A DNA stretch of 64,000 nt. It comes from Clostridiales bacterium. GTDB taxonomy: Bacteria > Bacillota > Clostridia > Christensenellales > QALW01. Positions 38,018 to 52,447 of this stretch are shown here, in pieces. Under the pieces are notes generated by a model. That model saw only the letters and a program-made list of their open reading frames with translations. It searched no databases and was not told the DNA's origin. Each line of letters begins with the position of its first letter. The stretch's first letter is position 1. Made by a program: the position numbers and the translations under genes. Location: NCBI GenBank assembly GCA_015069575.1, contig SVIH01000009.1, positions 1 through 64,000 of the forward strand. The letters are read 5' to 3'.

Positions 38018-38194
38018 ATGCAAAAAATTTGTATAAAAGACGAAGATCTAGCTGTTTTAAACAGCTTTCCTTTAGGCAAAGCATATGTGCCATACCAAAG
38101 ATTTACAAGCCCTGTTTCACCTGAAAAGGCATTGGAAATGGGCACTATCTGGCAGGAACTTTATCAGCCTTATCATAAAGGAGGAAAATTTTAA
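38018..38194 (+). CDS. cotJA: Spore coat associated protein CotJA
   Basis: 58 residues from ATG 38018; TTG 38012 is an alternative with a closer AAAGGA. The sequence LGKAYVPYQRFTSPVSPEKALEMGTIWQELYQPY is the CotJA signature. In sporulating Firmicutes cotJA-cotJB-cotJC encode inner coat proteins made in the mother cell. The TAA overlaps the ATG of cotJB (TAATG), so the genes are coupled. Confidence 0.92.
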   Translation: MQKICIKDEDLAVLNSFPLGKAYVPYQRFTSPVSPEKALEMGTIWQELYQPYHKGGKF

Positions 38195-38439
38195 TGAACC
38201 AGAAAGAAATGATGAAAAGACTTCAACAGTTAGGTTTTACCTTAGTTGAATTAAACCTTTATCTTGATACCCATCCTGATTGCGTAAAAGCTCGTGAACT
38301 TTATAACCGATATTCTCAAGAACAGGCTATGTTAAGGGAACAGTATTTTCAAAAGTACGGTCCAACCCTTAACTTTGGCGTTTGTCCTGCAGGGGACAGT
38401 TTTTCCTGGGTAAATTCACCTTGGCCATGGGAAAATTAA
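38194..38439 (+). CDS. cotJB: Spore coat protein CotJB
   Basis: 81 residues. LQQLGFTLVELNLYLDTHPDC, YNRYSQEQAMLREQY and the C-terminal WPWEN are characteristic of CotJB. AGGAGG lies in the end of cotJA. The gene is intact and followed 16 nt later by the 5' part of cotJC. Confidence 0.94.
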   Translation: MNQKEMMKRLQQLGFTLVELNLYLDTHPDCVKARELYNRYSQEQAMLREQYFQKYGPTLNFGVCPAGDSFSWVNSPWPWEN

Positions 38440-38455: not shown

Positions 38456-38656
38456 ATGTGGATTTATGAAAAAAAGTTACAGTTTCCTGTAGATATTAAA
38501 ATGAAGGATTTAAAAATGGCAAAGTTTCTCTTTGCTCAGTACGGCGGACCTGATAGTGAATTAAGTGCTTCTCAAACATACCTTGCACAGCGCTACACTA
38601 TGCCAACGCCCGAAACAAAGGCTCTCTTAAATGATATCGGTATATCGTTACGTTAG
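38456..38656 (+). pseudogene. cotJC: cotJC, 5' part of a gene split by the 13.4 kb element
   Basis: Sixty-two codons (MWIYEKKLQFPVDI ... TKALLNDIG) match the N-terminus of the manganese-catalase-like CotJC. After GG 38639-38640 the frame enters the element and ends four codons later (ISLR, TAG). The missing C-terminal part is intact and in frame at 52057-52447. Joining both at the shared GG gives 191 codons, a normal CotJC length (B. subtilis 189). AAAGGGG precedes the ATG. Confidence 0.93.
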
Positions 38657-38664
38657 TTGTGCAT
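38620..38664. other. attL of the cotJC element
   Basis: Half cotJC (to 38638), GG at 38639-38640, then tatatcgtta and the arm CGTTAGTTGTGCAT (38651-38664). The arm is the exact reverse complement of 52031-52044 at the other end. Confidence 0.88.
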
Positions 38665-38692
38665 TGACATTCCCATTTAAATATAATATAAT
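38664..38692 (+). promoter_or_regulatory. Consensus promoter of the recombinase operon, overlapping attL
   Basis: TTGACA (38664-38669), 17 bp, TATAAT (38687-38692). The first base of the -35 is the last base of the att arm, so recombinase bound to attL could repress its own promoter. Confidence 0.85.
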
Positions 38693-38730: not shown

Positions 38731-39036
38731 GTGGATACTATTGAATTCATTGTTGGCAAAATTGTAGAAAAAAACGGTGCTGATGCGAAACGCTTTATTA
38801 TAAAAAAGGACGAGTTTCTAAATACATTTGTTAAAGAATATACTGTTATCATAAAGCAAAGTGTTGAAAGGACCAATATGATAACAAATCCGGAAATTTT
38901 AACTTCCAACATTGATATTTCAAATATCGCGGAGCTGCAAAAGGCAATTACTAAGCATTTATTTACCAAACTACACACTAATAATTTAATCAGTGAAAGA
39001 GAGTTTGATGAGTTATGCAAAGGAGAATCTTTATAA
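38731..39036 (+). CDS. Small protein upstream of the recombinase, SHOCT-like C-terminus
   Basis: 101 residues from GTG 38731 (AAAGGAG upstream). Mostly helical. The last ~25 residues (LHTNNLISEREFDELCKGE) resemble a SHOCT oligomerisation/binding motif. It overlaps the recombinase start by 22 nt, so the two are coupled. A position directly beside the integrase would suit a recombination directionality or accessory factor, but nothing in the sequence proves it. Confidence 0.65.
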   Translation: MDTIEFIVGKIVEKNGADAKRFIIKKDEFLNTFVKEYTVIIKQSVERTNMITNPEILTSNIDISNIAELQKAITKHLFTKLHTNNLISEREFDELCKGESL

Positions 39037-40832
39037 ATAATATGCAATTCAATGATGATATTTTTGGTTTGGATACCAAAAACGCCGTAAGTTCATATGG
39101 TGTGTATACCGAAGAAGCAAAACCCAAAATGCCTTTGATATATGAAACAGAACGAAGTATAAACGTGTGTGCATACTGTCGAGTTTCTACGGACAAGCGG
39201 GACCAGGCAAACAGCTTTGAAGCGCAACAGGACTACTTTAATGAAGCTTTTAGTCGCAGAAAAAATTGGAAGCTTAAAACTATATTTGCAGATAATGGAA
39301 TCAGCGGTACTTCACTTAAAAATCGAGATAGCTTTGAACAAATGATAAGGGAAGCAAGGGCAGGAAAATATCAGCTTATTATAACAAAAAGCGTTTCGCG
39401 TTTTTCAAGGAACGTTCAACATATTATGAGTTTTGTAGAAGAATTACGCGAACTTGGCGTTTACATATGGTTTATTACAGATAAAATTTGTACCGATGAT
39501 GAAAACTACCGTAAAGCACTTATTGCTGCGTCTGATGCCGCAGAAGCAGAAAGTAGAGCAGCATCTGAGCGAGTTCGTTGGGGACAAAGGTACAAAATGC
39601 AACAAGGTGTTGTGTTCGGCCGCAAGGAAATGTTTGGCTATAACATCAAAAGAGACGAAGATGGAAAACAGTTTTTTGAAATAATACCCGATGAAGCAGA
39701 AATTGTTCGCCGCATATTTAGAATGTACGCAGATGGCTTGGGCACTTTTAAAATAGCACGTCGATTAGAGGAAGAAGGAATTAAAACAAAAAGGTACAAA
39801 AATGGTTGGTCTAACACCGTTATTCTTAAAATACTCCGCAATGAAAAATATGTCGGGGATTTAAAGCAAGGTAAAACCTATACAACGGACTATATTTCCC
39901 ATAAAAAGAAATACAACCGTGGAGAATATGCAACGCATTTTGCACCAAACCACCACGCTGAAAGTGCTATCGTTAGCCGAGACCTCTGGGAGCTTGTGCA
40001 AAAGAAATTAGAAGAAAATACCCCTTCAGACGAAGTGAAGAAAAAGCATAGCAACCGCTATTGGTGTAGCGGAAAGGTGTTTTGTGGGGAATGTGGCTCG
40101 CGTTATGTTTCTCATATTAAACATTTAAAAAACGGTGGTATTCATAAAGCCTGGAAATGTTGGGAAAATCAACAATACGGATATAAAAAACAACGGCTAA
40201 TAAATGGCGAGCCGGTTATAGATGAAGAAACAGGCGTAATAATAGAAATTGGGTGCAACAATCAAAGCGTTAATGACAAAGTGTTAAAGCAAGGCGTGCA
40301 TGATATACTGGAAGTTGTTATTGGCCCCATAATGCATAAAAATTACGAAAAATTAAAAGCAATAATATTAAAACGCAAAAAAGAAGATACCACCGAAACA
40401 AAGATAAAGAAGTTGGAAAAAAGACTAATTTCATTAGAAGATGAATGCGCAGATATAACACGACATATTTTAAAATCTCAAAGAGAAGATGAAATTGTGC
40501 CAATGGGTTTGCTTTTAGCACAAAAGCAGGTGGAAGAAGAAATAACTGCTACACAAAACGCAATAAATGAGTTGCGAAGAACAGAAAAAAATTACGATGT
40601 AGAAAATGCCGAAATGCTTTTAAAACTAGACAAACTCAAGGAGATTGTAGAACTTAAAGACGATAAAATAACAGAAGATATATATAGAAGTATTGTTGAC
40701 AAAATAGAAGTTTTTGATGGACATATACTGAAATATTATATCGCAGGTTGGGACAAGCCTATTGCTATGCAATATACGACAACAGGAAAACTGGATGCAT
40801 TTACAGTAGAGTTTGTAATATTGGAAGAATGA
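39015..40832 (+). CDS. Large serine recombinase
   Basis: 605 residues as framed; ATG 39042 is an alternative start. After a 48-residue extension comes the resolvase catalytic domain with nucleophile Ser58 in YCRVSTD and the SRFSRN helix (about 50-200). The recombinase domain (about 215-320, FGYNIKRDEDG ... SNTVILKILRNEKYVGD) and a zinc ribbon (CGECGSRY ... WKCW) follow, then a coiled coil (about 450-550). Such proteins integrate and excise elements at short att sites, here in cotJC. SpoIVCA of the B. subtilis skin element belongs to the same family. Confidence 0.94.
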   Translation: MQRRIFINNMQFNDDIFGLDTKNAVSSYGVYTEEAKPKMPLIYETERSINVCAYCRVSTDKRDQANSFEAQQDYFNEAFSRRKNWKLKTIFADNGISGTSLKNRDSFEQMIREARAGKYQLIITKSVSRFSRNVQHIMSFVEELRELGVYIWFITDKICTDDENYRKALIAASDAAEAESRAASERVRWGQRYKMQQGVVFGRKEMFGYNIKRDEDGKQFFEIIPDEAEIVRRIFRMYADGLGTFKIARRLEEEGIKTKRYKNGWSNTVILKILRNEKYVGDLKQGKTYTTDYISHKKKYNRGEYATHFAPNHHAESAIVSRDLWELVQKKLEENTPSDEVKKKHSNRYWCSGKVFCGECGSRYVSHIKHLKNGGIHKAWKCWENQQYGYKKQRLINGEPVIDEETGVIIEIGCNNQSVNDKVLKQGVHDILEVVIGPIMHKNYEKLKAIILKRKKEDTTETKIKKLEKRLISLEDECADITRHILKSQREDEIVPMGLLLAQKQVEEEITATQNAINELRRTEKNYDVENAEMLLKLDKLKEIVELKDDKITEDIYRSIVDKIEVFDGHILKYYIAGWDKPIAMQYTTTGKLDAFTVEFVILEE

Positions 40833-40966: not shown

Positions 40967-41671
40967 ATGAATGTTGCAATATGCGATGATGATAAGGTGT
41001 TCCAAGAAAAAATAAGAACTCAACTTTCAAAAGTTGAGTTCTTCAAAAACAGCAATTATATATTCTGTGAAACAGGGGAGGATTTGTTGAAATCTTTTGA
41101 TTCAACTCAACCTTTTGATTTTGTTTTCTTAGATGTAGATATGCCGAAAATGAATGGGTTGGAGGCTGGAGAAACTCTTAATAAACTTTCGCCTAAAACA
41201 ATAATTATTTTTGTGTCCAGTTATCCGCAGTTTGCAATTGATGCTTTTGATTGTAATGCAATAGGTTATCTTCTTAAAGGTTGCAACCAAGAAAAATTCA
41301 ATAGAACTATAGAGAAAGCAATCTACAGATACAAAGATCTTAATACACAATTGCACTTAAAAACAGGAACTGAAATGGTTAAAGTAGACCTTAATACAAT
41401 ATTTTATGTTGAATACTCAAGGAAGTATTGCCAATATCATACTGCTAACGCTATATACGCAGTACGGCAACAGTTACATGAAGCGTTAACAGAATTAAAT
41501 CCGTTTGGATTTATACAAATATATCAATGCTATATTGTTAATTTAGCTAAAATTAAAAAGATTCAAACATCTAGCGTTGTTTTGGAAGGAGATACTGAAT
41601 TACCTATAAAAAGAGGAACCAGCAAGGAATTAATAAAAAAATATAACGACTATATGACCAAGAGGTGTTAA
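40967..41671 (+). CDS. AgrA-like response regulator (REC + LytTR)
   Basis: 234 residues. Receiver domain 1-120 with acidic pocket CDDD (6-9) and phospho-acceptor Asp56 in FLDVDMP. C-terminal LytTR DNA-binding domain (about 130-232) with FYVEYSRKYCQYHTA, RQQLHEALTELNPFGFIQIYQCYIVNL. It is stop-to-start coupled with the kinase gene. In agr circuits this type of protein activates the agr operon and target genes when the peptide is sensed. Confidence 0.9.
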   Translation: MNVAICDDDKVFQEKIRTQLSKVEFFKNSNYIFCETGEDLLKSFDSTQPFDFVFLDVDMPKMNGLEAGETLNKLSPKTIIIFVSSYPQFAIDAFDCNAIGYLLKGCNQEKFNRTIEKAIYRYKDLNTQLHLKTGTEMVKVDLNTIFYVEYSRKYCQYHTANAIYAVRQQLHEALTELNPFGFIQIYQCYIVNLAKIKKIQTSSVVLEGDTELPIKRGTSKELIKKYNDYMTKRC

Positions 41672-43009
41672 ATGGAAACTATATATAACATAATTTTTGC
41701 GTGTTTGGATGCTGCATTATCATATATTACGATAAGTTATTTGTTTTCGGCATTCAGTTTAACAAAAAGAATTAAATTTAAGTATTTACATATAATTGGT
41801 TTGTGCGTAAGCATTGTTAACACTTTATTTATCAATAAAGCTCTGTTAATATTATTTATCACTTTCTTATGTGCTTTAATATATTCTTATGGATACAATA
41901 TAAAGTGGTATAATAACTTGTTTATTTCTTTTGTCTCAGTTGCGTTAAGTGCTTTATCCGAATTAATAGTCGGTATTGTAATGATGACAGTTTTTTCAAT
42001 GCCCTTTGATAACACTGTTACAGGAGCGGCATATTTTATAGGTTTAATACTTTCGCGTTTTATAGCATATATAATTACATACATAATAAAAATTTCAAAG
42101 CACAAATTATTTCATAAAGATTTTCGTAAAAAGTGGCTATTGATATTCATTTTGCCTATTGCAACCGTTCTTGTATGTGGGGTGCTGTTTAAAAATATAA
42201 GTATTGGACAGGCAGATCAAAGTGAATTTGTTATATTTATAATACTTTCTTTGCTTGTAGCAAGCAATGTGTTTGTTTTTTATTTTATTGATGATATTTA
42301 TGAAGCAATTGCAAATAAAGAAAAATTGAATTTAGCACAAAATCTTATAAAGCAACAAGAAAAACAATATGAGGAATTATATGCTAACAGTAGAGAATTA
42401 AGAAAATTAAGGCATAATTATAAAAACTTTTTACTCGGCGTTATAGCTGAAATAGAGAAAGAAAATTATGACAACATAAAAAAATCGTTTGATAGTGAAT
42501 TAGGTATATTAAACGTTACTCCTGCGGAAGAGATTCAAACAGGTAATGCTACCTTTGATTCACTTCTAAATTATAAAGTAGCACAGGCATCGCAGTATGG
42601 TATAAATTTTGAGTTTGAATTTCAAAAAATGAGCAGGGTTAATTTTTCAGATATAGACCTTGCCGTTTTAATAGGTAATGCAATTGATAATGCTATTGAA
42701 GCAACGGTACAAGTAGAAAACGAACAAGAAAAAATAATAGAATTTTCTGCAAAGGTAAATAACTCACAACTTATTATAAGCATTATTAATCCTACAGATA
42801 AAGATGTTGACGTGCTTAATTTGAGCACAAACAAAAAAGATGCTTACAATCATGGCTTTGGCGTTTTAACGATGATGCAAATAGTGCAAAAATACCAGGG
42901 TGATGTGGTCTTTAATTATGAAAACAAAAAGTTTGAAACTATAATTTATATTAGTTTGCCCGACGGTTCTATAAACGCGACAAAACAAGGTCAAATTACC
43001 GCAATATAA
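41672..43009 (+). CDS. AgrC-like sensor histidine kinase (GHKL)
   Basis: 445 residues. Six or seven hydrophobic segments (1 to about 215) form the peptide-sensing domain. The dimerisation segment follows with the phospho-His in LRKLRHNYKNF (about residue 248). The GHKL ATPase has IGNAIDNAIEA (N box) and NHGFGVLTM (G box). It has the architecture of AgrC (HPK10 family). It starts at the base after the response regulator stop. Confidence 0.9.
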   Translation: METIYNIIFACLDAALSYITISYLFSAFSLTKRIKFKYLHIIGLCVSIVNTLFINKALLILFITFLCALIYSYGYNIKWYNNLFISFVSVALSALSELIVGIVMMTVFSMPFDNTVTGAAYFIGLILSRFIAYIITYIIKISKHKLFHKDFRKKWLLIFILPIATVLVCGVLFKNISIGQADQSEFVIFIILSLLVASNVFVFYFIDDIYEAIANKEKLNLAQNLIKQQEKQYEELYANSRELRKLRHNYKNFLLGVIAEIEKENYDNIKKSFDSELGILNVTPAEEIQTGNATFDSLLNYKVAQASQYGINFEFEFQKMSRVNFSDIDLAVLIGNAIDNAIEATVQVENEQEKIIEFSAKVNNSQLIISIINPTDKDVDVLNLSTNKKDAYNHGFGVLTMMQIVQKYQGDVVFNYENKKFETIIYISLPDGSINATKQGQITAI

Positions 43010-43034
43010 AGACATCATATTGAAAGAATTTTTT

Positions 43035-43072
43035 AAAGTGATATTATTTTTACATAAATAATATCACTTTTT
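43035..43072 (+). terminator. Terminator between agrC and agrB
   Basis: AAAGTGATATTATTT pairs with AAATAATATCACTTT around ttacat, followed by a T-rich run. It lies 20 nt before the agrB start, so agrBD needs readthrough or its own promoter. Confidence 0.75.
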
Positions 43073-43091
43073 GTTTTTTGGTGATTTAATA

Positions 43092-43691
43092 ATGTATAAA
43101 AAATTAGCAATTTTAATAACCGACAAATTAATCAGGTCCAATTCTGCAGCCGAAGAAAAACGGGCAATTTATGAATATGGATTTCAATTAATGTTTAATG
43201 CATTGGTTAACTTTATATCGTTTTTGACTTTAGCATTAATATCAAAAACTTTTGTACCGTGCTTGTTCTTTATGATAGGCTTTTTCGCTATAAGGGGGCT
43301 TTCAGGCGGATTTCACGCTTCGTCTCCGCTTAAGTGCTATCTTTTATCCACAATAAGTCAGGTGCTATTCATTTTAATTTATAATGTTATTCCTTCATCA
43401 ATATATTTGACGTTGTTTAGCGTAGTAACCACAACAATAATAATTGCATTGTTTGTTTTTGCTCCTGTTGATCATAAAAACAAACCTTTTTACGGTACCG
43501 AGTATGTGCGCTTTAAAAAGCGGAGTAGGATATATGCATTAATTATTCCGTTTGTTATGTTGCCGTCATTTTTTATGCAACCTGTACAAACGATGGCGTT
43601 CTCGTATTTATTTGGCTCTTTTGTGGCTACCTTTGCTATGGTTGTGGCAAAAATAATAAGAATTAAAGAAACACGTAATAAAGCATCATAA
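43092..43691 (+). CDS. agrB: AgrB peptidase (pheromone maturation)
   Basis: 199 residues from ATG 43092 (GGTGAT upstream). Several membrane segments. The catalytic pair His75 and Cys82 lies in RGLSGGFHASSPLKCYLL, exactly the HX6C arrangement of AgrB cysteine endopeptidases. AgrB removes the AgrD C-terminus and closes the thiolactone ring. The AgrD gene follows 31 nt later. Confidence 0.93.
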   Translation: MYKKLAILITDKLIRSNSAAEEKRAIYEYGFQLMFNALVNFISFLTLALISKTFVPCLFFMIGFFAIRGLSGGFHASSPLKCYLLSTISQVLFILIYNVIPSSIYLTLFSVVTTTIIIALFVFAPVDHKNKPFYGTEYVRFKKRSRIYALIIPFVMLPSFFMQPVQTMAFSYLFGSFVATFAMVVAKIIRIKETRNKAS

Positions 43692-43722
43692 AAAGATGCT
43701 AAAAATAAAGGAGGAAATTTTT

Positions 43723-43872
43723 ATGAAAAAAATCAAACAGTTTATTATTAAGAATGGTGGCTTGCTTGCTGCTCTTGCACTTACAATAGGTGTATTCTCT
43801 GCAACTGGGGCATCATGCCTTTGGTTTAATCAGCCTGAAGTTCCTGAAGCATTAAATAGCTATAGAAAGTAA
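43723..43872 (+). CDS. agrD: AgrD pheromone precursor, predicted ring CLWFN
   Basis: 49 residues with AAAGGAGG upstream. The layout is typical of AgrD: amphipathic leader (MKKIKQFIIKNGG), hydrophobic stretch, core TGASCLWFN, then the conserved acidic/Pro tail QPEVPEAL. By comparison with S. aureus AgrD (CDFIM before DEPEVP) and the clostridial CLWFT-type ring as I recall it, the mature peptide should be a five-residue thiolactone closing Cys to Asn, with a short N-terminal tail. The exact ends are inferred. Confidence 0.9.
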   Translation: MKKIKQFIIKNGGLLAALALTIGVFSATGASCLWFNQPEVPEALNSYRK

Positions 43873-43885
43873 ACGCCCCCCAGTA

Positions 43886-43932
43886 AAAAGCAAACTATCC
43901 TACAATTTGAAAGTAGGATAGTTTGTTTTTTT
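43886..43932. terminator. Bidirectional terminator after agrD
   Basis: AAACTATCCTAC / GTAGGATAGTTT around aatttgaaa, T tract on the right and A-rich left side. Shared with the convergent XRE gene. Confidence 0.88.
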
Positions 43933-44269
43933 ATTTGTTTTTTAGTAGTTCTTGCTTCAAGGTATTAATTGCGGTTGTTGTCAAAGTAACTTCCTTGCCA
44001 AAGAGGTTTTTTGTTAGTTTGGCTATAATCTGCTCTTTTGTGAGATTTGAAAGAATACAAATTTGTTGCAATTGAGTTATATTTTTACAATCTAATAATT
44101 CATCAGGTGTTATCCCGTACATTTTTGATAAGATTTGTATGTTTTCTTTAGGAATTAAAATTTTATTGTTTTCATAAGCTCTGTATGTTCTTGTGTTTAT
44201 TGCTAAAAACTTTGCAAGGTCTTTTTCGCTTAATCCAATAAATTCACGTATAATCTTAAGGTTGTTCAT
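43931..44269 (-). CDS. XRE family regulator
   Basis: 112 residues. N-terminal HTH: LKIIREFIGLSEKDLAKFLAINTRTYRAYENNK. The C-terminal half (CKNITQLQQICILSNLTKEQIIAKLTKNLFGKEV) is helical and of unknown role. GGAGAACTCT lies upstream of the ATG. It is convergent with agrD and could regulate element genes; the target is unknown. Confidence 0.8.
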   Translation of the reverse strand: MNNLKIIREFIGLSEKDLAKFLAINTRTYRAYENNKILIPKENIQILSKMYGITPDELLDCKNITQLQQICILSNLTKEQIIAKLTKNLFGKEVTLTTTAINTLKQELLKNK

Positions 44270-44468: not shown

Positions 44469-45379
<911 letters not shown>

Positions 45380-45841
45380 ATGCCAGAAACTGAAGTCTTA
45401 TCAAAAAAGATTATAAAAATAAGAAAAACACTAAAACAAAATCAGTTTGAGTTTGCAGAAAATTGTGGCATTAGTGTTGAAACATTAAGCTTAATTGAAC
45501 GTAAAAAAGCGGATCCACGGTTAAGCACGATTCAAAAAATTGCGGCTTATACGGGTGTTCTTGTTTCTGATTTGGTTGATGTTGGCATAATAGGATATGA
45601 AATGGATTGTATATACGAAATAAGAGAAGATTTAATAAAAGATGAAAGCGGTAAAAATGTAAAAGTGTATGGTATAGATGTTTTTCGAACAGTATGCATG
45701 AATAAGGAAATACTTTTTTCTATACCAAATATTTTTGTTGATTACTATAGAATTCAACGACTTGTAAATATGTGTAATGAAAATTCTGTTAGTGTATTAC
45801 ATATCAGTGATATTATTGACGATGCGTTGCTTTTAGAATAA
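45380..45841 (+). CDS. XRE family regulator with C-terminal extension
   Basis: 153 residues. HTH at about 10-65: IIKIRKTLKQNQFEFAENCGISVETLSLIERKKADPRLSTIQKIAAYTG. The C-terminal ~85 residues have no recognised domain and contain a short Cys-containing segment. AAAGAGG lies upstream. It sits just before the RHS gene on the same strand, with a separate promoter for the latter. Confidence 0.8.
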   Translation: MPETEVLSKKIIKIRKTLKQNQFEFAENCGISVETLSLIERKKADPRLSTIQKIAAYTGVLVSDLVDVGIIGYEMDCIYEIREDLIKDESGKNVKVYGIDVFRTVCMNKEILFSIPNIFVDYYRIQRLVNMCNENSVSVLHISDIIDDALLLE

Positions 45842-46033: not shown

Positions 46034-46061
46034 TTGACATAGATACCCTGTAAGGTATAAT
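46034..46061 (+). promoter_or_regulatory. Promoter of the RHS gene
   Basis: TTGACA, 16 bp, TATAAT, about 40 bp before the ATG at 46100. Confidence 0.75.
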
Positions 46062-46099: not shown

Positions 46100-49000
46100 A
46101 TGAAAAAACGCACATTTATTACGGTGTTGTCTTTTTTGTTGGCTTTAACAATTTTCTTTCAGGTGATGCCTGAAAATATTGTAAAAGCGCAGGAAAATTT
46201 AGAATTAGAACCCGTAACACAAACAGAACAAAAAGAAGCAGAAATTCTTTATGAAATCGAAGAACGACGTGAAGAAGCTGTTAAGCACTTCAAAATGAGC
46301 GATGGCTCAGTGATGGCGGCGGTGTATTCTGACGTTGTACATAAAGAAGATGCAAACGGCGATTTGGTTGATATAGACAATACGTTAGAAGAAGACGGCG
46401 ACGTATATAAAAACGTTGACGGAACTTTTGACGTAAGCTTTGCGAAAAAACCAAAGAGCAACAAAATGGTTGAGATTAACTATAACGGTTATGAAATCAG
46501 CTTTGGTATTGAAAATATAAAAAACAAATCCGTTAAGGTTAAAAACGGTGAAAAGAATAAAAAAAGCTCTTTAACACAAACCTCATCACAGGCGCGTTAT
46601 GACGGAGCTTTTAACGGCATTGACCTTGTTTATGACCTTACAGGCTCAAAAATCAAGGAAAGCATTGTTATTAACGAATATGCAGGTATCAATGAATTTA
46701 CCTTTGTTTACCGTTTTGGTGGTTTAAGCCCTGTTTTAAACGATGACGGCAGTATTGACCTTTTTGACGGTGAAACAAAGGTTCTTGAAATTCAGGCACC
46801 GTTTATGTTTGATAGTGCTAATGCTGAAAGCACAGACATCAAAGTAACTCTTACGCAACAGGGTAGCAAGTATAATTATACTCTTAGCGCAAGTGAAGAA
46901 TGGCTTACCGCAGAAGAACGTGTTTATCCTGTTACGATTGATCCTACAACATCAACATATCACTATAAAACAAACGTTTATGATACTTATATAAATTATC
47001 AGAGTCCTACAGTTTCTTCTTTTAGAGAAAATAGGGATAGGCTTCTTGTAGGTACGTCCAACGGTGGTGGCGAATATTCCACTACTTTTGAAGGATACAG
47101 AACATATATCTGGTTTGATATGCCTAATATTCCTGCAGGTTCAAGGGTAAGTAACGCATTACTTACATTGTATTGCCATGCTGATGAGTGGAGAAACTGG
47201 GACGATATTGAAGAAGATATTCGCATAGATTTATATGAGCTTTTACCCGGTGCACAGCACGCCAATGATATATGTTGGAATAACAAGGATACTTTAGTCA
47301 CGGTAAAAAATACACCCACAGACTACCAGTGCTTAAGAAAGGCCGAGCTTTCGGAAACCAATTTCTATTATGAGTGGAATATCACAAGCCTTATTGACAG
47401 TTATTATGAAACAAAAAATAGTGGAAATATACCTAATAATTATGCTCCCGGTATGATGCTTCGGTTCGCCAATGAATCTGCAGATACTAATGATTTTTAT
47501 GCAGGTTTCCATTCAGGAAACAGTACAATAACGGAATATCATCCTTCAATAATAGTATACTATCAAGATGCCAAAGGCATTGAGGGCTATTACGACTATT
47601 TTGCATCAAGTTTAGACGATAGCGGTGTAGGTTACGTTAATGCTTTTAATGGAAGCCTTAACTATGTAAATACTGTAGTTTCAGAAAGCGGAACAAGGCT
47701 TCCTGCAACAGTTTCAGCGTATTATAACAGTGCAAATGTAAGCGGTTCAACAAGCGGATGGAATTTTAGTTTTAATCAAAAAATAACTTATAATTCTGAA
47801 CTTGATTTCTACGCCTATACTGATGCAGACGGAACAACACACTATTTTAGAAAATATAACAAAGAGTACGTTGACGAGACAGGCAGTGGTTTGATTTTAA
47901 AAAACGTTCCTAACAGTACCGATATTCAGCTTAAATATGAAGATCAACCAAGCAAAACTGTGTTTGAAAAAATATATGGTAATTGGTACATAAAAAGCGT
48001 AGAAGACGGTTTAGGAAATACTCAGACATATGAACACAGCGGTACATTAGTAACTTCTATTAAAGACGGTGCTGACAGGATAACAACAATCGGTTATAGC
48101 GGAGCAACAGTTACGAGCATAATTGATGCATCAGGAAAAACTACAACCTTTGAATATTCAACAATAAGCCCTAACCAAAAAACTATTACAAAAATAAATT
48201 ATCCTAATGGAAAATCTGTTCAGATACAGTATTTTACCGGTGGATATATTTATCAGGTGATTGCGTCTACTAATGCTAAATATGTATATAATTATGACGC
48301 ATTTAATCGTGTTTGTGCAATAGGAGAATATGATAGGCAGTGGCAGTATATTAATCGTTATACCCTTAACTACGCCCATAAAAACACAACAAAAATAACA
48401 GATAAAAATAACGATAGTTTATTGTATCAGTTTGATTTTTACGGCAAAACCGTAAGCGTTGTTGATGATGACGGCAACGCTATGTATAACGCATATTCCA
48501 ATATGACGCCCGAAACCACAACGGATAACTATTATTTAAGAAACAAATTAATGGTGCAATCCGATCTTCAGTCAACAGTAATAAATTATCTTAAAAATAT
48601 AAGTGCGGAACAAAATAAGACCGGCTGGGTAAAGGAAGGCGGCGCAGTTGAAATTGATAGTGACCAATTTATCGGTTACAATTGCTTTAAGGTTATTGGT
48701 GGTAGTGCATATCAAGAAGTGCCGGTTATAAAAGACAGAGAATATACATTTTCTTCGTATATAAAAACGACTTCAAGCAATAGCGCATATCTTAAAGCAA
48801 CGGGGTCCTGTACCACAGTTATAGGTGAACAGATTAGCACTGACAATGAATGGGAACGCCACTCAATTACTTTTAAAGCAACACAAACAGGCAACGTTAA
48901 AGTGTATATGTGTTCAGATAACACTGCATTTTTTGATTTGTTGCAAGTTGAAGACGGTCCTGCGGCAAACCGCGTAAACTTACTTGTTGGCGGTGATTTT

Positions 49001-52000
49001 GGTAAATATGAAAATAGCTGGAACAAAGAAGGCGGAGCAGTAACTGTTACCCAAAATGTTGCCGGTCCCAAATATTCAAGCGTTGTTCAATCACAAACAA
49101 CAAATGCTGTTTTAAAGATGCAAGGAAACTATATGGGTGACGTTTATGCATATCAAAACGTGCATCTTAACGTTTCTGATAAAGGCAGTCTTGTTTTAAG
49201 CGGATGGGCAAAGGCAGATGCCGTTCCTGATAATGAAGAATACAATTCAGGCAGATGGTTTGGTATGTACGTTAAATTAACTTATGCCGATACCGATAGA
49301 ACTACAAAAATCATTCCTGTTGAATTTAATACCGCAGTACGTATTGAAGGCTCAACCACAGCTGACAGTTGGCAATACGTTTGTGCCGCAATTCCGTTGG
49401 ACAGTGATTACGTTGACCATCTTAACGTTTTAACTGCATCTGTATATCTTTGCTATAACAATAACATTAATACTGCATATTTTGATAATATTCAGCTCTA
49501 TTACGAAGAATTTGGTCAAAGCTACGCTTATGACGAAAAAGGCAACGTAATAACTGCCGTAGATCAGGCAAACCAGACTACAAACTTTACTAACACAGGC
49601 AGCGATTTATCTACACTTTCTGACCCTGACGGCAGTAATTATGAATATTTTTATAGCAGCAATAAACTTTTGAGTGAATATAAAAGCGCAACAGGCGTTG
49701 GTGCAAAATATCGTTACGATAAATACGGCAACCCTAAAGAAGCAATTACCTATAGCGGTCTTTATACTGAAAGTATAGATGAAGGATATTATTATATTGA
49801 TATCTTAGGCATGTTTTTAATTAAAAACGGTACAAATGCAGATGTTTCTTTTAATGCAACAAATCAAGATAACAAGCTTGTTCAGTTAATAAAAACTGAA
49901 GGCGGATATTATAAGATTAAAATCGGAGATAAATATCTTGAACGCACTCAGTATTCATATGACAACTTGCGTTTTGACAATTTTAATAACAGCAAAGGAC
50001 AGGGTTGGAAATTTATTCCCGATGAAAACGGTGGATATCAGATAGTATCCCAATCTCCGTATGGCGAAAATGGTTACGTGGGCAATATTTATCTTGAATA
50101 CAGCTTTGTTGAAGGTAATGTATGTGTTACAAAACACAAATCAGATAATGTATGGTATTTACATAAAGTAGATATAGATACTTCTAAAATCGGAGATATA
50201 AATCAGGCATCACAGATAAAGGATATGCACAAATATTATTTTGTTTCCGCAAAAACAGGGCGTGCACTTAATTACGAACTTGATAATATTTCACTTATGT
50301 TAACCGATGTAGAAGGTGCAGAATTTACATTACATACAGTTGGCAACAAATTTGTAATTTTGCCTGATTTAAGTTATGGTGAATATTCGCCAATCATCTA
50401 TGCCGATTCAACACATCCAACATATGAGGTTTCACCTGATCGCGAACAGCCTAAATACTTTACGCGTCTTATCCCTAATGAAAACGGCGGGTTTAGGTTG
50501 TATTCAGACTATTACGGAAAATATATTAAGGTTGGTAATGATAATTATGCAGTTACCGTTTCCTCTACACCGTCAACCGATAATTCTGATGTTTGGTATA
50601 TTTTTGAAAGGTCAAAAAATATAGTAACATCTGCTGAATATTCTGAAAACTACAAGGGTAACTACCTTACCAGTGAGACCGATGCATTAGGTAACAGCGT
50701 AACCTACACTTATGATTTTGCTTCCGGCAAAATGATGAGCGTAACTGATGCAATAGGCAATACAACAAACTATCAGTATGATTCTGACGATAAATTAACA
50801 AGCGTAACACAGGGCGGTATAACCGTTCAGTATGGTTACGATAGCAACAATCAGCTGGCGACCATCACTCACAACAACTTTACGTATAATTTTATTTACG
50901 ATGCTTTAGGCAGAAACGATCAAACAAAAATCGGTACGCGCTTGCTTGTTGATAATCTGTATTGTGCTGAAAGCGGTTTGTTAAAGCAGTCAGTTTACGG
51001 TAACGGTCAAAAACGTGAATATGAGTTTGATAATCAGTACCGCGTAAAGAAACTGATTATTGACAATATTGACCGTTTCAGCTATACTTATGATTATGAA
51101 GGTAACTTACACGAGGTTAAGGATCTTGTGCAAGGTATCACATACAAATACATTTATGATATGCTTGGCAGACCTGTACAGGTTCGCACATCTGATGGCT
51201 TCAGGATAAAGCTTGCGTATGATGAATTTAACCGCGCAAGTGACGTTAAATTTGAGTTTGGCTCAAGCAATTTAACAACCTCTTGGCGCTACGGTAAATC
51301 AAGCATTGTTTATGGTGTTAAGTATAACGGAACAGAAAAGATTACCTACAATTACGATTCTTTAATGCGCCGTACAAACACCACGATTAATACAACAACC
51401 CCCTTTGTTACAAACTACAGCTACAAAGACCACGCAAGTGACTACAATCGTACGTCAACACAGTTACAAGCGATTTCGTATAGTAATAATAAGGGCTTTA
51501 AATATACCTACGATGCTAACGGCAATATTACAAGCATAAAAGACCAAAATAACAATGCCGTTGCAGATTATTTCTATGATGAACTTAATCAATTGGTGTG
51601 GGAGGATAATTTACAATTAAATAAGACCATTATGTACGCATATGATAATGGCGGTAATATTCTGAATGTTGAAGAATATGAATATTGCTGTGATTACGAT
51701 CCTGATAAATTAATTTCGCAAAAAAATTATACCTATGGCGATAGTGAGTGGAAAGACCTTTTAACTAATTATAACGGCATAGACATTAATTACGATACTA
51801 TCGGCAACCCACTTAATTGGATAAATGGAGAATCATTTACGTGGAGTGGTGGCAGACAGCTTACAGGCATCACCAAAGGCAACAACACCATTTCTTATGC
51901 ATATAATGATAGCGGTATAAGGACAAGTAAGACGGTTAATAATGTTCACTTGTTAAAAGCCCTTGAAAATACAGGGTTTTTGTGGTATAATAAAGATGGT

Positions 52001-52015
52001 ATATATGTTGTTTAG
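46100..52015 (+). CDS. Giant secreted RHS/YD-repeat (WapA-like) protein, 3'-truncated
   Basis: 1971 residues from ATG 46100 (AAAGGAAAAAAGG upstream). Signal peptide 1-35. DNRLRE-type domain about 277-490. YD repeats from about 560 to 800. A carbohydrate-binding-like region about 815-1130 with two NKEGGAV-type modules. Beta-trefoil-like repeats about 1230-1505. More YD repeats about 1515-1950. The protein ends 16 bp before attR, before any RHS-core closing motif or toxin domain. The last ~22 residues come from promoter/hairpin DNA. No immunity gene follows. Confidence 0.85.
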   Translation: MKKRTFITVLSFLLALTIFFQVMPENIVKAQENLELEPVTQTEQKEAEILYEIEERREEAVKHFKMSDGSVMAAVYSDVVHKEDANGDLVDIDNTLEEDGDVYKNVDGTFDVSFAKKPKSNKMVEINYNGYEISFGIENIKNKSVKVKNGEKNKKSSLTQTSSQARYDGAFNGIDLVYDLTGSKIKESIVINEYAGINEFTFVYRFGGLSPVLNDDGSIDLFDGETKVLEIQAPFMFDSANAESTDIKVTLTQQGSKYNYTLSASEEWLTAEERVYPVTIDPTTSTYHYKTNVYDTYINYQSPTVSSFRENRDRLLVGTSNGGGEYSTTFEGYRTYIWFDMPNIPAGSRVSNALLTLYCHADEWRNWDDIEEDIRIDLYELLPGAQHANDICWNNKDTLVTVKNTPTDYQCLRKAELSETNFYYEWNITSLIDSYYETKNSGNIPNNYAPGMMLRFANESADTNDFYAGFHSGNSTITEYHPSIIVYYQDAKGIEGYYDYFASSLDDSGVGYVNAFNGSLNYVNTVVSESGTRLPATVSAYYNSANVSGSTSGWNFSFNQKITYNSELDFYAYTDADGTTHYFRKYNKEYVDETGSGLILKNVPNSTDIQLKYEDQPSKTVFEKIYGNWYIKSVEDGLGNTQTYEHSGTLVTSIKDGADRITTIGYSGATVTSIIDASGKTTTFEYSTISPNQKTITKINYPNGKSVQIQYFTGGYIYQVIASTNAKYVYNYDAFNRVCAIGEYDRQWQYINRYTLNYAHKNTTKITDKNNDSLLYQFDFYGKTVSVVDDDGNAMYNAYSNMTPETTTDNYYLRNKLMVQSDLQSTVINYLKNISAEQNKTGWVKEGGAVEIDSDQFIGYNCFKVIGGSAYQEVPVIKDREYTFSSYIKTTSSNSAYLKATGSCTTVIGEQISTDNEWERHSITFKATQTGNVKVYMCSDNTAFFDLLQVEDGPAANRVNLLVGGDFGKYENSWNKEGGAVTVTQNVAGPKYSSVVQSQTTNAVLKMQGNYMGDVYAYQNVHLNVSDKGSLVLSGWAKADAVPDNEEYNSGRWFGMYVKLTYADTDRTTKIIPVEFNTAVRIEGSTTADSWQYVCAAIPLDSDYVDHLNVLTASVYLCYNNNINTAYFDNIQLYYEEFGQSYAYDEKGNVITAVDQANQTTNFTNTGSDLSTLSDPDGSNYEYFYSSNKLLSEYKSATGVGAKYRYDKYGNPKEAITYSGLYTESIDEGYYYIDILGMFLIKNGTNADVSFNATNQDNKLVQLIKTEGGYYKIKIGDKYLERTQYSYDNLRFDNFNNSKGQGWKFIPDENGGYQIVSQSPYGENGYVGNIYLEYSFVEGNVCVTKHKSDNVWYLHKVDIDTSKIGDINQASQIKDMHKYYFVSAKTGRALNYELDNISLMLTDVEGAEFTLHTVGNKFVILPDLSYGEYSPIIYADSTHPTYEVSPDREQPKYFTRLIPNENGGFRLYSDYYGKYIKVGNDNYAVTVSSTPSTDNSDVWYIFERSKNIVTSAEYSENYKGNYLTSETDALGNSVTYTYDFASGKMMSVTDAIGNTTNYQYDSDDKLTSVTQGGITVQYGYDSNNQLATITHNNFTYNFIYDALGRNDQTKIGTRLLVDNLYCAESGLLKQSVYGNGQKREYEFDNQYRVKKLIIDNIDRFSYTYDYEGNLHEVKDLVQGITYKYIYDMLGRPVQVRTSDGFRIKLAYDEFNRASDVKFEFGSSNLTTSWRYGKSSIVYGVKYNGTEKITYNYDSLMRRTNTTINTTTPFVTNYSYKDHASDYNRTSTQLQAISYSNNKGFKYTYDANGNITSIKDQNNNAVADYFYDELNQLVWEDNLQLNKTIMYAYDNGGNILNVEEYEYCCDYDPDKLISQKNYTYGDSEWKDLLTNYNGIDINYDTIGNPLNWINGESFTWSGGRQLTGITKGNNTISYAYNDSGIRTSKTVNNVHLLKALENTGFLWYNKDGIYVV
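51963..51991 (+). promoter_or_regulatory. Outward promoter at the right end of the element
   Basis: TTGAAA (51963-51968), 17 bp, TATAAT (51986-51991), inside the last codons of the RHS frame and pointing at attR. In the excised circle it would read across attP into the recombinase genes. Confidence 0.65.
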
Positions 52016-52030
52016 GACATCTTTTGCAAG

Positions 52031-52075
52031 ATGCACAACTAACGAAACAATGTAGGCACCGAAGAACTTGCCCAC
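52031..52075. other. attR of the cotJC element
   Basis: Arm ATGCACAACTAACG (52031-52044), aaacaatgta, GG (52055-52056), then cotJC sequence. With attL it reconstructs a 50 bp attP: 14 bp arms, 10 bp spacers and a central GG; spacers match as a dyad at 7 of 10 positions. Confidence 0.88.
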
Positions 52076-52447
52076 TGGGAGATGCTGGGAACCATGATTT
52101 ATCAGTTAACCAAGGATGCAACACCTGAAGAAATGCGTGAAGCAGGTTTAGGTGATTATTATGCAACACGCGGTAAAGGTGTTTTTCAATCAAGCCCATC
52201 AGGCGAACCTTGGACCAGTGCATATATTCAGGTACTTGATGATCCTATTGCAAACCTTACCAACAATATGGCAGCAGAACAAAAGGCACGCGCCGCCTAC
52301 GAACGCCTTATGAACTTAACCGACGATATCAGCGTTATTCAGCCACTTTCACTTTTGCGTGAAAGGGAAATCGTTCACTTCCAGCGTTTTGGTGAAGCTC
52401 TTATGTCCTTACAAACCGACTGTATGAAAGGGTATGCAAAAGGCTAA
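52057..52447 (+). pseudogene. cotJC: cotJC, 3' part of the split gene
   Basis: In the frame continuing from GG 52055-52056 this reads GTEELAHWEMLGTMIYQL and on to a stop, the C-terminal two thirds of CotJC. It carries the ferritin-like Glu and His ligands (EELAHWE, REREIVHFQRFGE). It has no ribosome binding site of its own; an internal ATG at 52082 could give a fragment. No frameshift or stop has accumulated, consistent with a recent insertion or with selection for a functional excised form. Confidence 0.92.

What the first reader, a model, noticed from the sequence alone, without database searches (positions are those of the whole stretch)
40967..43872. Complete mobile agr quorum-sensing locus with predicted thiolactone ring CLWFN
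The response regulator, kinase, AgrB (His75/Cys82) and AgrD are all intact inside the element. The precursor core TGASCLWFN followed by QPEVPEAL parallels known AgrD peptides. A pheromone system carried by an excisable element could couple excision, RHS expression or host sporulation to population density.
Basis: partly seen in the sequence, partly recalled or inferred. Interest (0 to 1): 0.65.

Follow-up and report, generated by a model that had tools for sequence, protein, structure and literature searches.

The report
Quorum-sensing genes inside a spore-gene element
A complete bacterial "count your neighbours" signalling system sits on a piece of mobile DNA that has cut a spore-coat gene in two, so the cargo is ordinary but its address inside a sporulation gene is unusual.

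Summary
Confirmed: 40967-43872 holds an intact agr locus. It consists of a LytTR response regulator, an AgrC-like GHKL kinase, AgrB (His75/Cys82) and AgrD (TIGR04223, over cut-off). It is the only agrB in this 1.59-Mb genome and is absent from the other four genomes held for its family.

The locus is cargo of a 13.4-kb large-serine-recombinase element with exact ends: GG crossover at 38639-40 and 52055-56, flanked by imperfect inverted arms (21 of 24 matching). It splits the spore-coat gene cotJC in frame. A same-genus genome has cotJC split at the same codon by a different element without agr; another has it intact. At least ten genomes of the order show both halves broken there.

Two corrections. 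(1) The predicted ring is probably not CLWFN. In 22 of 22 AgrDs of the order the ring nucleophile (Cys or Ser) lies six residues before the [QE]P motif; here that residue is Ser, which favours a serine lactone [SCLWF]. (2) Coupling to excision or RHS expression has no sequence support. The recombinase operon and the RHS gene each have a consensus sigma-A-type promoter, and no LytTR-type repeats were found.

Mobile agr is already known from phages and plasmids. An agr circuit on a sporulation-gene intervening element appears to be a new combination.

The parts
38456..38640 (+). 5' part of cotJC (residues 1-61 plus GG core), preceded by cotJB 38194-38439
   Evidence: CotJB PF12652 1.1e-27; Mn_catalase match 1-63; joins in frame to the 3' part
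38639..38640 (.). predicted left crossover dinucleotide GG (attL); element arm TATATCGTTACGTTAGTTGTGCAT follows
   Evidence: 21 of 24 bases match the reverse complement of the right arm
38664..38692 (+). sigma-A-type promoter TTGACA-17-TATAAT for orf101 and the recombinase
   Evidence: 12 of 12 consensus matches
38731..39036 (+). orf101, small protein overlapping the recombinase start; candidate recombination accessory or directionality factor (inference)
   Evidence: ORF; no Pfam family; small ORFs with a similar-looking C-terminus precede other cotJC-linked recombinases
39015..40832 (+). large serine recombinase, 605 aa
   Evidence: Resolvase 3.3e-29, Recombinase 2.4e-24, Zn ribbon
40967..41671 (+). 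AgrA-like LytTR response regulator (receiver Asp56)
   Evidence: Pfam; residue
41672..43009 (+). AgrC-like membrane histidine kinase, GHKL type, H-box His248
   Evidence: Pfam and NCBIfam; hydropathy segments up to residue 209
43035..43070 (+). 15-bp perfect hairpin followed by a T-rich tail, candidate terminator or attenuator between kinase and agrB; a promoter-like TTGAAA-16-TATTAT (43020-43047) overlaps it
   Evidence: fold -14.7 kcal/mol; promoter scan
43092..43691 (+). AgrB peptidase/cyclase, His75 and Cys82
   Evidence: PF04647 1.7e-35
43723..43872 (+). AgrD precursor, 49 aa, MKKIKQ...ATGASCLWFNQPEVPEALNSYRK
   Evidence: TIGR04223 3.3e-9 over cut-off; spacing comparison
43885..43930 (+). 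terminator-like hairpin downstream of agrD, shared with the convergent xre gene
   Evidence: fold -22.6 kcal/mol
43931..44269 (-). Xre-type regulator
   Evidence: HTH_3 8.1e-8
44469..45056 (-). small serine resolvase/invertase, 195 aa
   Evidence: Resolvase 3.6e-30
45380..45841 (+). Xre regulator with DUF6514
   Evidence: DUF6514 9.2e-11
46100..52015 (+). secreted RHS/YD-repeat protein, apparently 3'-truncated near the element end; own consensus promoter 46034-46061
   Evidence: RHS_repeat 2.7e-21; promoter
52055..52056 (.). predicted right crossover dinucleotide GG (attR); element arm ATGCACAACTAACGAAACAATGTA precedes
52057..52447 (+). 3' part of cotJC (TEELAHWE...)
   Evidence: Mn_catalase match 61-197; junction

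Best explanation
The locus is a complete, probably working agr-type peptide pheromone circuit carried as cargo by a 13.4-kb non-phage integrative element that lives in the spore-coat gene cotJC. AgrB cuts AgrD after the QP-proximal ring residue and closes a small macrocycle, most likely the serine lactone [SCLWF]; a thiolactone through the adjacent Cys is the alternative. The exported peptide activates the element's own AgrC-like kinase, which phosphorylates the LytTR regulator (inferred from family knowledge). The element integrates and excises at cotJC through its large serine recombinase at a GG crossover; excision would rebuild an in-frame cotJC, as for skin, gin or yin elements. Shown by sequence: gene content, exact ends, in-frame reconstitution, same-site occupation by other elements in relatives. 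Inferred: peptide production, kinase response, excision and its timing, and any target gene. The most likely role is private signalling that tunes the agr operon itself and unknown host genes, not excision or the RHS gene.
For: Domain matches for all four genes with catalytic residues. cotJC halves and recombinase around the element. 24-bp inverted arms around a shared GG and an in-frame join. Same-codon splitting of cotJC by a different element in same-genus G001, and intact cotJC in G002. Both halves broken at codon 61/62 in ten genomes of the order. A single agrB in the genome and none in the other four genomes of the family. Spo0A and SigK/SigE-like genes present, so a sporulation programme is plausible.
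Against: No expression, peptide or excision data exist. The recombinase promoter looks constitutive, and no directionality factor is identified with certainty. No LytTR repeats were found. The hairpin between kinase and agrB could weaken agrBD expression. The AgrD spacing differs from relatives if Cys is the ring residue.
Confidence: 0.72

Rival explanations
1. The mature signal is the Cys thiolactone [CLWFN], with AgrB cutting between Asn and Gln.
For: Close resemblance to the C. perfringens ring CLWFT (PMC12312760, PMC6534674). Cys is the usual and better nucleophile: 17 of 22 comparison rings.
Against: The Cys is one residue too close to QPEVP. All 22 comparison AgrDs have Cys or Ser at -6 from [QE]P, and Asn directly before QP is a normal post-ring residue in three of them.
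Confidence: 0.3
2. The agr circuit controls excision of the element or expression of the RHS gene, so that cell density times cotJC repair or RHS display.
For: Physical linkage on one element. In C. difficile, Agr1 acts in sporulation regulation (title and abstract of PMC10602386; not read in full here). A 9-mer AAAAGTTGT is shared by the regions upstream of RR and RHS.
Against: Recombinase and RHS genes each have a 12-of-12 consensus promoter. No LytTR direct repeats. The 9-mer is expected by chance in such AT-rich DNA (own estimate, about 0.2 to 0.5). Other cotJC elements examined have no agr hit.
Confidence: 0.12
3. The locus is a decaying passenger: the genes are intact by chance or recent arrival, but it is not expressed or has no target.
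For: Low GC of the RR-HK part (0.294 against 0.333 for the element). A terminator-like hairpin before agrB. A truncated RHS neighbour.
Against: Four open genes with conserved catalytic residues, ribosome-binding sites and a terminator-like hairpin after agrD.
Confidence: 0.15
4. The element is a fixed remnant that inactivates cotJC and can no longer move; the genome copes with a second Mn-catalase-like gene.
For: A second Mn-catalase-family gene exists at contig 6. The RHS gene is truncated at the element edge.
Against: Intact recombinase, well-matched arms and an exact in-frame join.
Confidence: 0.2

Closest known systems
agr quorum-sensing systems of clostridia (e.g. C. perfringens AgrD, ring CLWFT; C. 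difficile agr2)
   Same: AgrB, AgrD, GHKL membrane kinase and LytTR regulator; core residues CLWF followed by QPxxP
   Different: One residue fewer between Cys and the QP motif, with Ser in the conserved ring position; gene order RR-HK-B-D; carried on an integrative element
phiCDHM1 agr3 locus (PMC3901668) and agr genes on clostridial plasmids
   Same: Mobile carriage of agr genes
   Different: phiCDHM1 lacks a response regulator and is a phage; here the set is complete, on a small element without recognised phage genes, in a sporulation gene
gin, skin, vfbin, SP-beta (spsM) and yin sporulation-gene intervening elements (PMC5595907, PMC10747680, PMC4191935)
   Same: Large serine recombinase element splitting a sporulation gene, inverted att arms around a central dinucleotide, in-frame reconstruction on excision; like gin, no phage genes recognised here
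   Different: The target is cotJC, for which no such element was found in the searched library; carries a complete pheromone circuit; excision not demonstrated

Membership tests
agr peptide quorum-sensing system | AgrB membrane peptidase with catalytic His/Cys | tested here: met
   PF04647 1.7e-35; His75/Cys82 invariant in 10 AgrBs
agr peptide quorum-sensing system | AgrD precursor with leader, ring and charged PxxP tail | tested here: met
   TIGR04223 36.7 bits, cut-off 19
agr peptide quorum-sensing system | Cys or Ser at ring position (-6 from [QE]P) | tested here: met
agr peptide quorum-sensing system | Polytopic GHKL sensor kinase | tested here: met
   HATPase_c_5 3.8e-21; hydrophobic segments to residue 209, His248
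agr peptide quorum-sensing system | LytTR-domain response regulator | tested here: met
   LytTR 3.8e-15
agr peptide quorum-sensing system | LytTR direct-repeat sites at the autoregulated promoter | tested here: inconclusive
   None found with 9-bp repeats, at most 1 mismatch, spacing 19-24; the motif of this regulator is unknown
agr peptide quorum-sensing system | Secreted cyclic peptide activates the cognate kinase | not testable with these tools
   needs mass spectrometry and a reporter assay
sporulation-gene intervening element (skin/gin type) | Splits a sporulation gene that rejoins in frame | tested here: met
   cotJC halves join to one 191-aa frame; intact homologue in G002
sporulation-gene intervening element (skin/gin type) | Large serine recombinase and att sites with inverted arms around a central dinucleotide | tested here: met
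sporulation-gene intervening element (skin/gin type) | Recombination directionality factor | tested here: inconclusive
   orf101 is only a positional candidate
sporulation-gene intervening element (skin/gin type) | Excision during sporulation in the mother cell | not testable with these tools
   no reads or cultures; recombinase promoter looks sigma-A type, as the paper on gin reports constitutive recombinase expression for SP-beta and C. difficile skin
prophage | Structural, packaging or lysis genes | tested here: not met
   No phage family among the element's Pfam and NCBIfam matches; PHROGs was not run

The most novel reading that the evidence does not exclude
A sporulation-gene intervening element uses its own peptide pheromone (a serine lactone) to sense how many neighbours carry it, and by this times its excision, and so the repair of cotJC, or its host's entry into sporulation.
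Probability: 0.1. Interest if true: 0.75.

Novelty: new variant of a known kind. Interest (0 to 1): 0.45.

Why it matters
Sporulation-gene intervening elements are known mainly for their recombinases. One that carries a complete cell-to-cell signalling circuit gives a testable case of whether such elements can listen to population density. The recurrent splitting of cotJC in related genomes also marks that gene as a common docking site. The serine-lactone prediction matters in practice, because a synthetic peptide made to the CLWFN design would probably be the wrong molecule.

Tried and rejected
Viral contigs: no relative of the window's AgrB or recombinase. AgrD-core DNA patterns in viral contigs gave only chance matches. 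tblastn of AgrD against plasmids gave none and against phages one weak hit; AgrB gave only distant phage and plasmid relatives. A scan for LytTR direct repeats in the intergenic regions found none. Papers joining cotJC with serine recombinases, or agrBD with integrative elements, gave no hits. The idea that agr is a standard part of cotJC elements was rejected: none of the other elements examined showed a hit, though several were cut by contig ends.

Full report
What was checked. The response regulator has receiver and LytTR domains. The kinase is a membrane GHKL kinase with a weak but whole-length AgrC match. AgrB matches PF04647 at 1.7e-35, with His75 and Cys82 counted from the ATG at 43092. 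AgrD, starting at 43723 behind a GGAGG site, passes the TIGR04223 cut-off. His75 and Cys82 are among the nine invariant positions of ten aligned AgrBs. Chance is not an issue.

The element. cotJB is intact at 38194-38439, but cotJC is cut. Its first 61 codons end at 38640 and the rest resumes at 52057. The first bases inside each end form an inverted pair: TATATCGTTACGTTAGTTGTGCAT on the left and the complement of ATGCACAACTAACGAAACAATGTA on the right, 21 of 24 positions equal, around a GG present at both junctions. Joining the flanks at GG gives one 191-residue CotJC frame. A 605-aa large serine recombinase lies just inside the left end. The whole element and both flanks lie on one 77.7-kb contig, so this is not an assembly join.

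Recurrence. In the same genus, G001 has cotJC split at the same codon by a different element: recombinase 47-48% identical, a nitroreductase and a tyrosine integrase as cargo, no agr. G002 has cotJC intact. Across 396 genomes of the order, 80 encode a CotJC-like protein, and ten genomes, this one included, have both halves broken at about codon 61-66. Five more show a single half broken there, one of them (G025) beside an intact copy. A second site near codon 137 is broken in G099, G107, G180 and G337, and probably G321. Recombinase genes lie next to many of these breaks. No other fetched element gave an AgrB, kinase or regulator hit. Several of those were cut by contig ends, so this is not a census.

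Is agr itself mobile here? It is the only agrB in the genome, none of the other four genomes of the family has one, and 21 of 396 genomes of the order do. The loci elsewhere in the order often show the same regulator-kinase-agrB order, so the arrangement is ordinary. Of the 20 larger agrB regions fetched from the order, two gave a (weak) recombinase hit. The simplest reading is acquisition of a standard agr set by one cotJC element.

The signal. 22 AgrDs from the order were aligned on the [QE]PxxP motif. In all 22 the residue six before the Q or E is the ring nucleophile, Cys in 17 and Ser in 5, and the residue before Q/E (Y, H, N, C or F) lies outside the ring. In the window's ...ATGASCLWFNQPEVPEAL, position -6 is Ser and position -5 is Cys. 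Ala precedes the nucleophile in most relatives, as it precedes Ser here. Asn before QP occurs outside the ring in three relatives. The positional prediction is therefore a serine lactone [SCLWF] cut before Asn. The counter-argument is the likeness to the C. perfringens ring CLWFT. I put [SCLWF] at about 0.6, [CLWFN] at 0.3 and a four-residue [CLWF] ring at 0.1 (inference).

Control of excision and RHS. The recombinase operon has a TTGACA-17-TATAAT promoter just inside the left arm, and the RHS gene has TTGACA-16-TATAAT. No LytTR-type direct repeats were found in the element's intergenic regions. Thus nothing in the DNA ties agr to either. Constitutive recombinase with separate control of a directionality factor is the arrangement reported for SP-beta and C. 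difficile skin (PMC5595907). orf101 is a positional candidate for such a factor, but it would be co-expressed with the recombinase. A 15-bp hairpin with a T-rich tail separates the kinase from agrB and may make agrBD transcription conditional; this is inference.

Sporulation. The genome has Spo0A-type proteins and two SigK/SigE-like sigma factors in open frames, so a sporulation programme is plausible. It also has another Mn-catalase-family gene, so loss of cotJC may be tolerated.

Known and new. agr circuits, agr on phages (phiCDHM1, without a regulator, PMC3901668) and agr on plasmids are known. Sporulation-gene intervening elements in sigK, spsM, spoVFB, gerE and yabG are known. No paper in the searched open library describes cotJC as such a target or an agr circuit on such an element; subscription literature was not searchable. 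The finding is therefore a new combination of two known things.

Noticed in passing
window 38456-38640 and 52057-52447; L011, L014, L018, L023, L025, L026, L027: cotJC is a recurrent docking site for large serine recombinase elements in this order: the same codon 61/62 in at least ten genomes and a second site near codon 137 in at least four, with divergent recombinases and varied cargo.
   Followed up: partly
window 46100-52015: The RHS/YD-repeat gene ends about 40 bp before attR, with an unusual tail after SGIRTSKTVNNV, as if its 3' end, where a variable C-terminal domain would be expected, had been cut off by the element's edge.
   Followed up: no
window 38731-39036; L018, L023, L025, L026, L014: A small ORF with a loosely similar C-terminal helix pattern sits directly upstream of the recombinase in several cotJC-linked elements; possible directionality or accessory factor.
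   Followed up: partly
G025 and G089: These genomes show both an intact cotJC and a separate broken fragment or fragments, which could reflect mixed integrated and excised cells in the sample or a second copy.
   Followed up: no
G180, contigs 73 and 19: cotJC appears broken at more than one place in the same genome.
   Followed up: no
L104, L105, L106, L107, L118: Serine-ring (lactone-type) AgrD precursors are common in this order, 5 of 22 sampled, rather than a rarity.
   Followed up: yes
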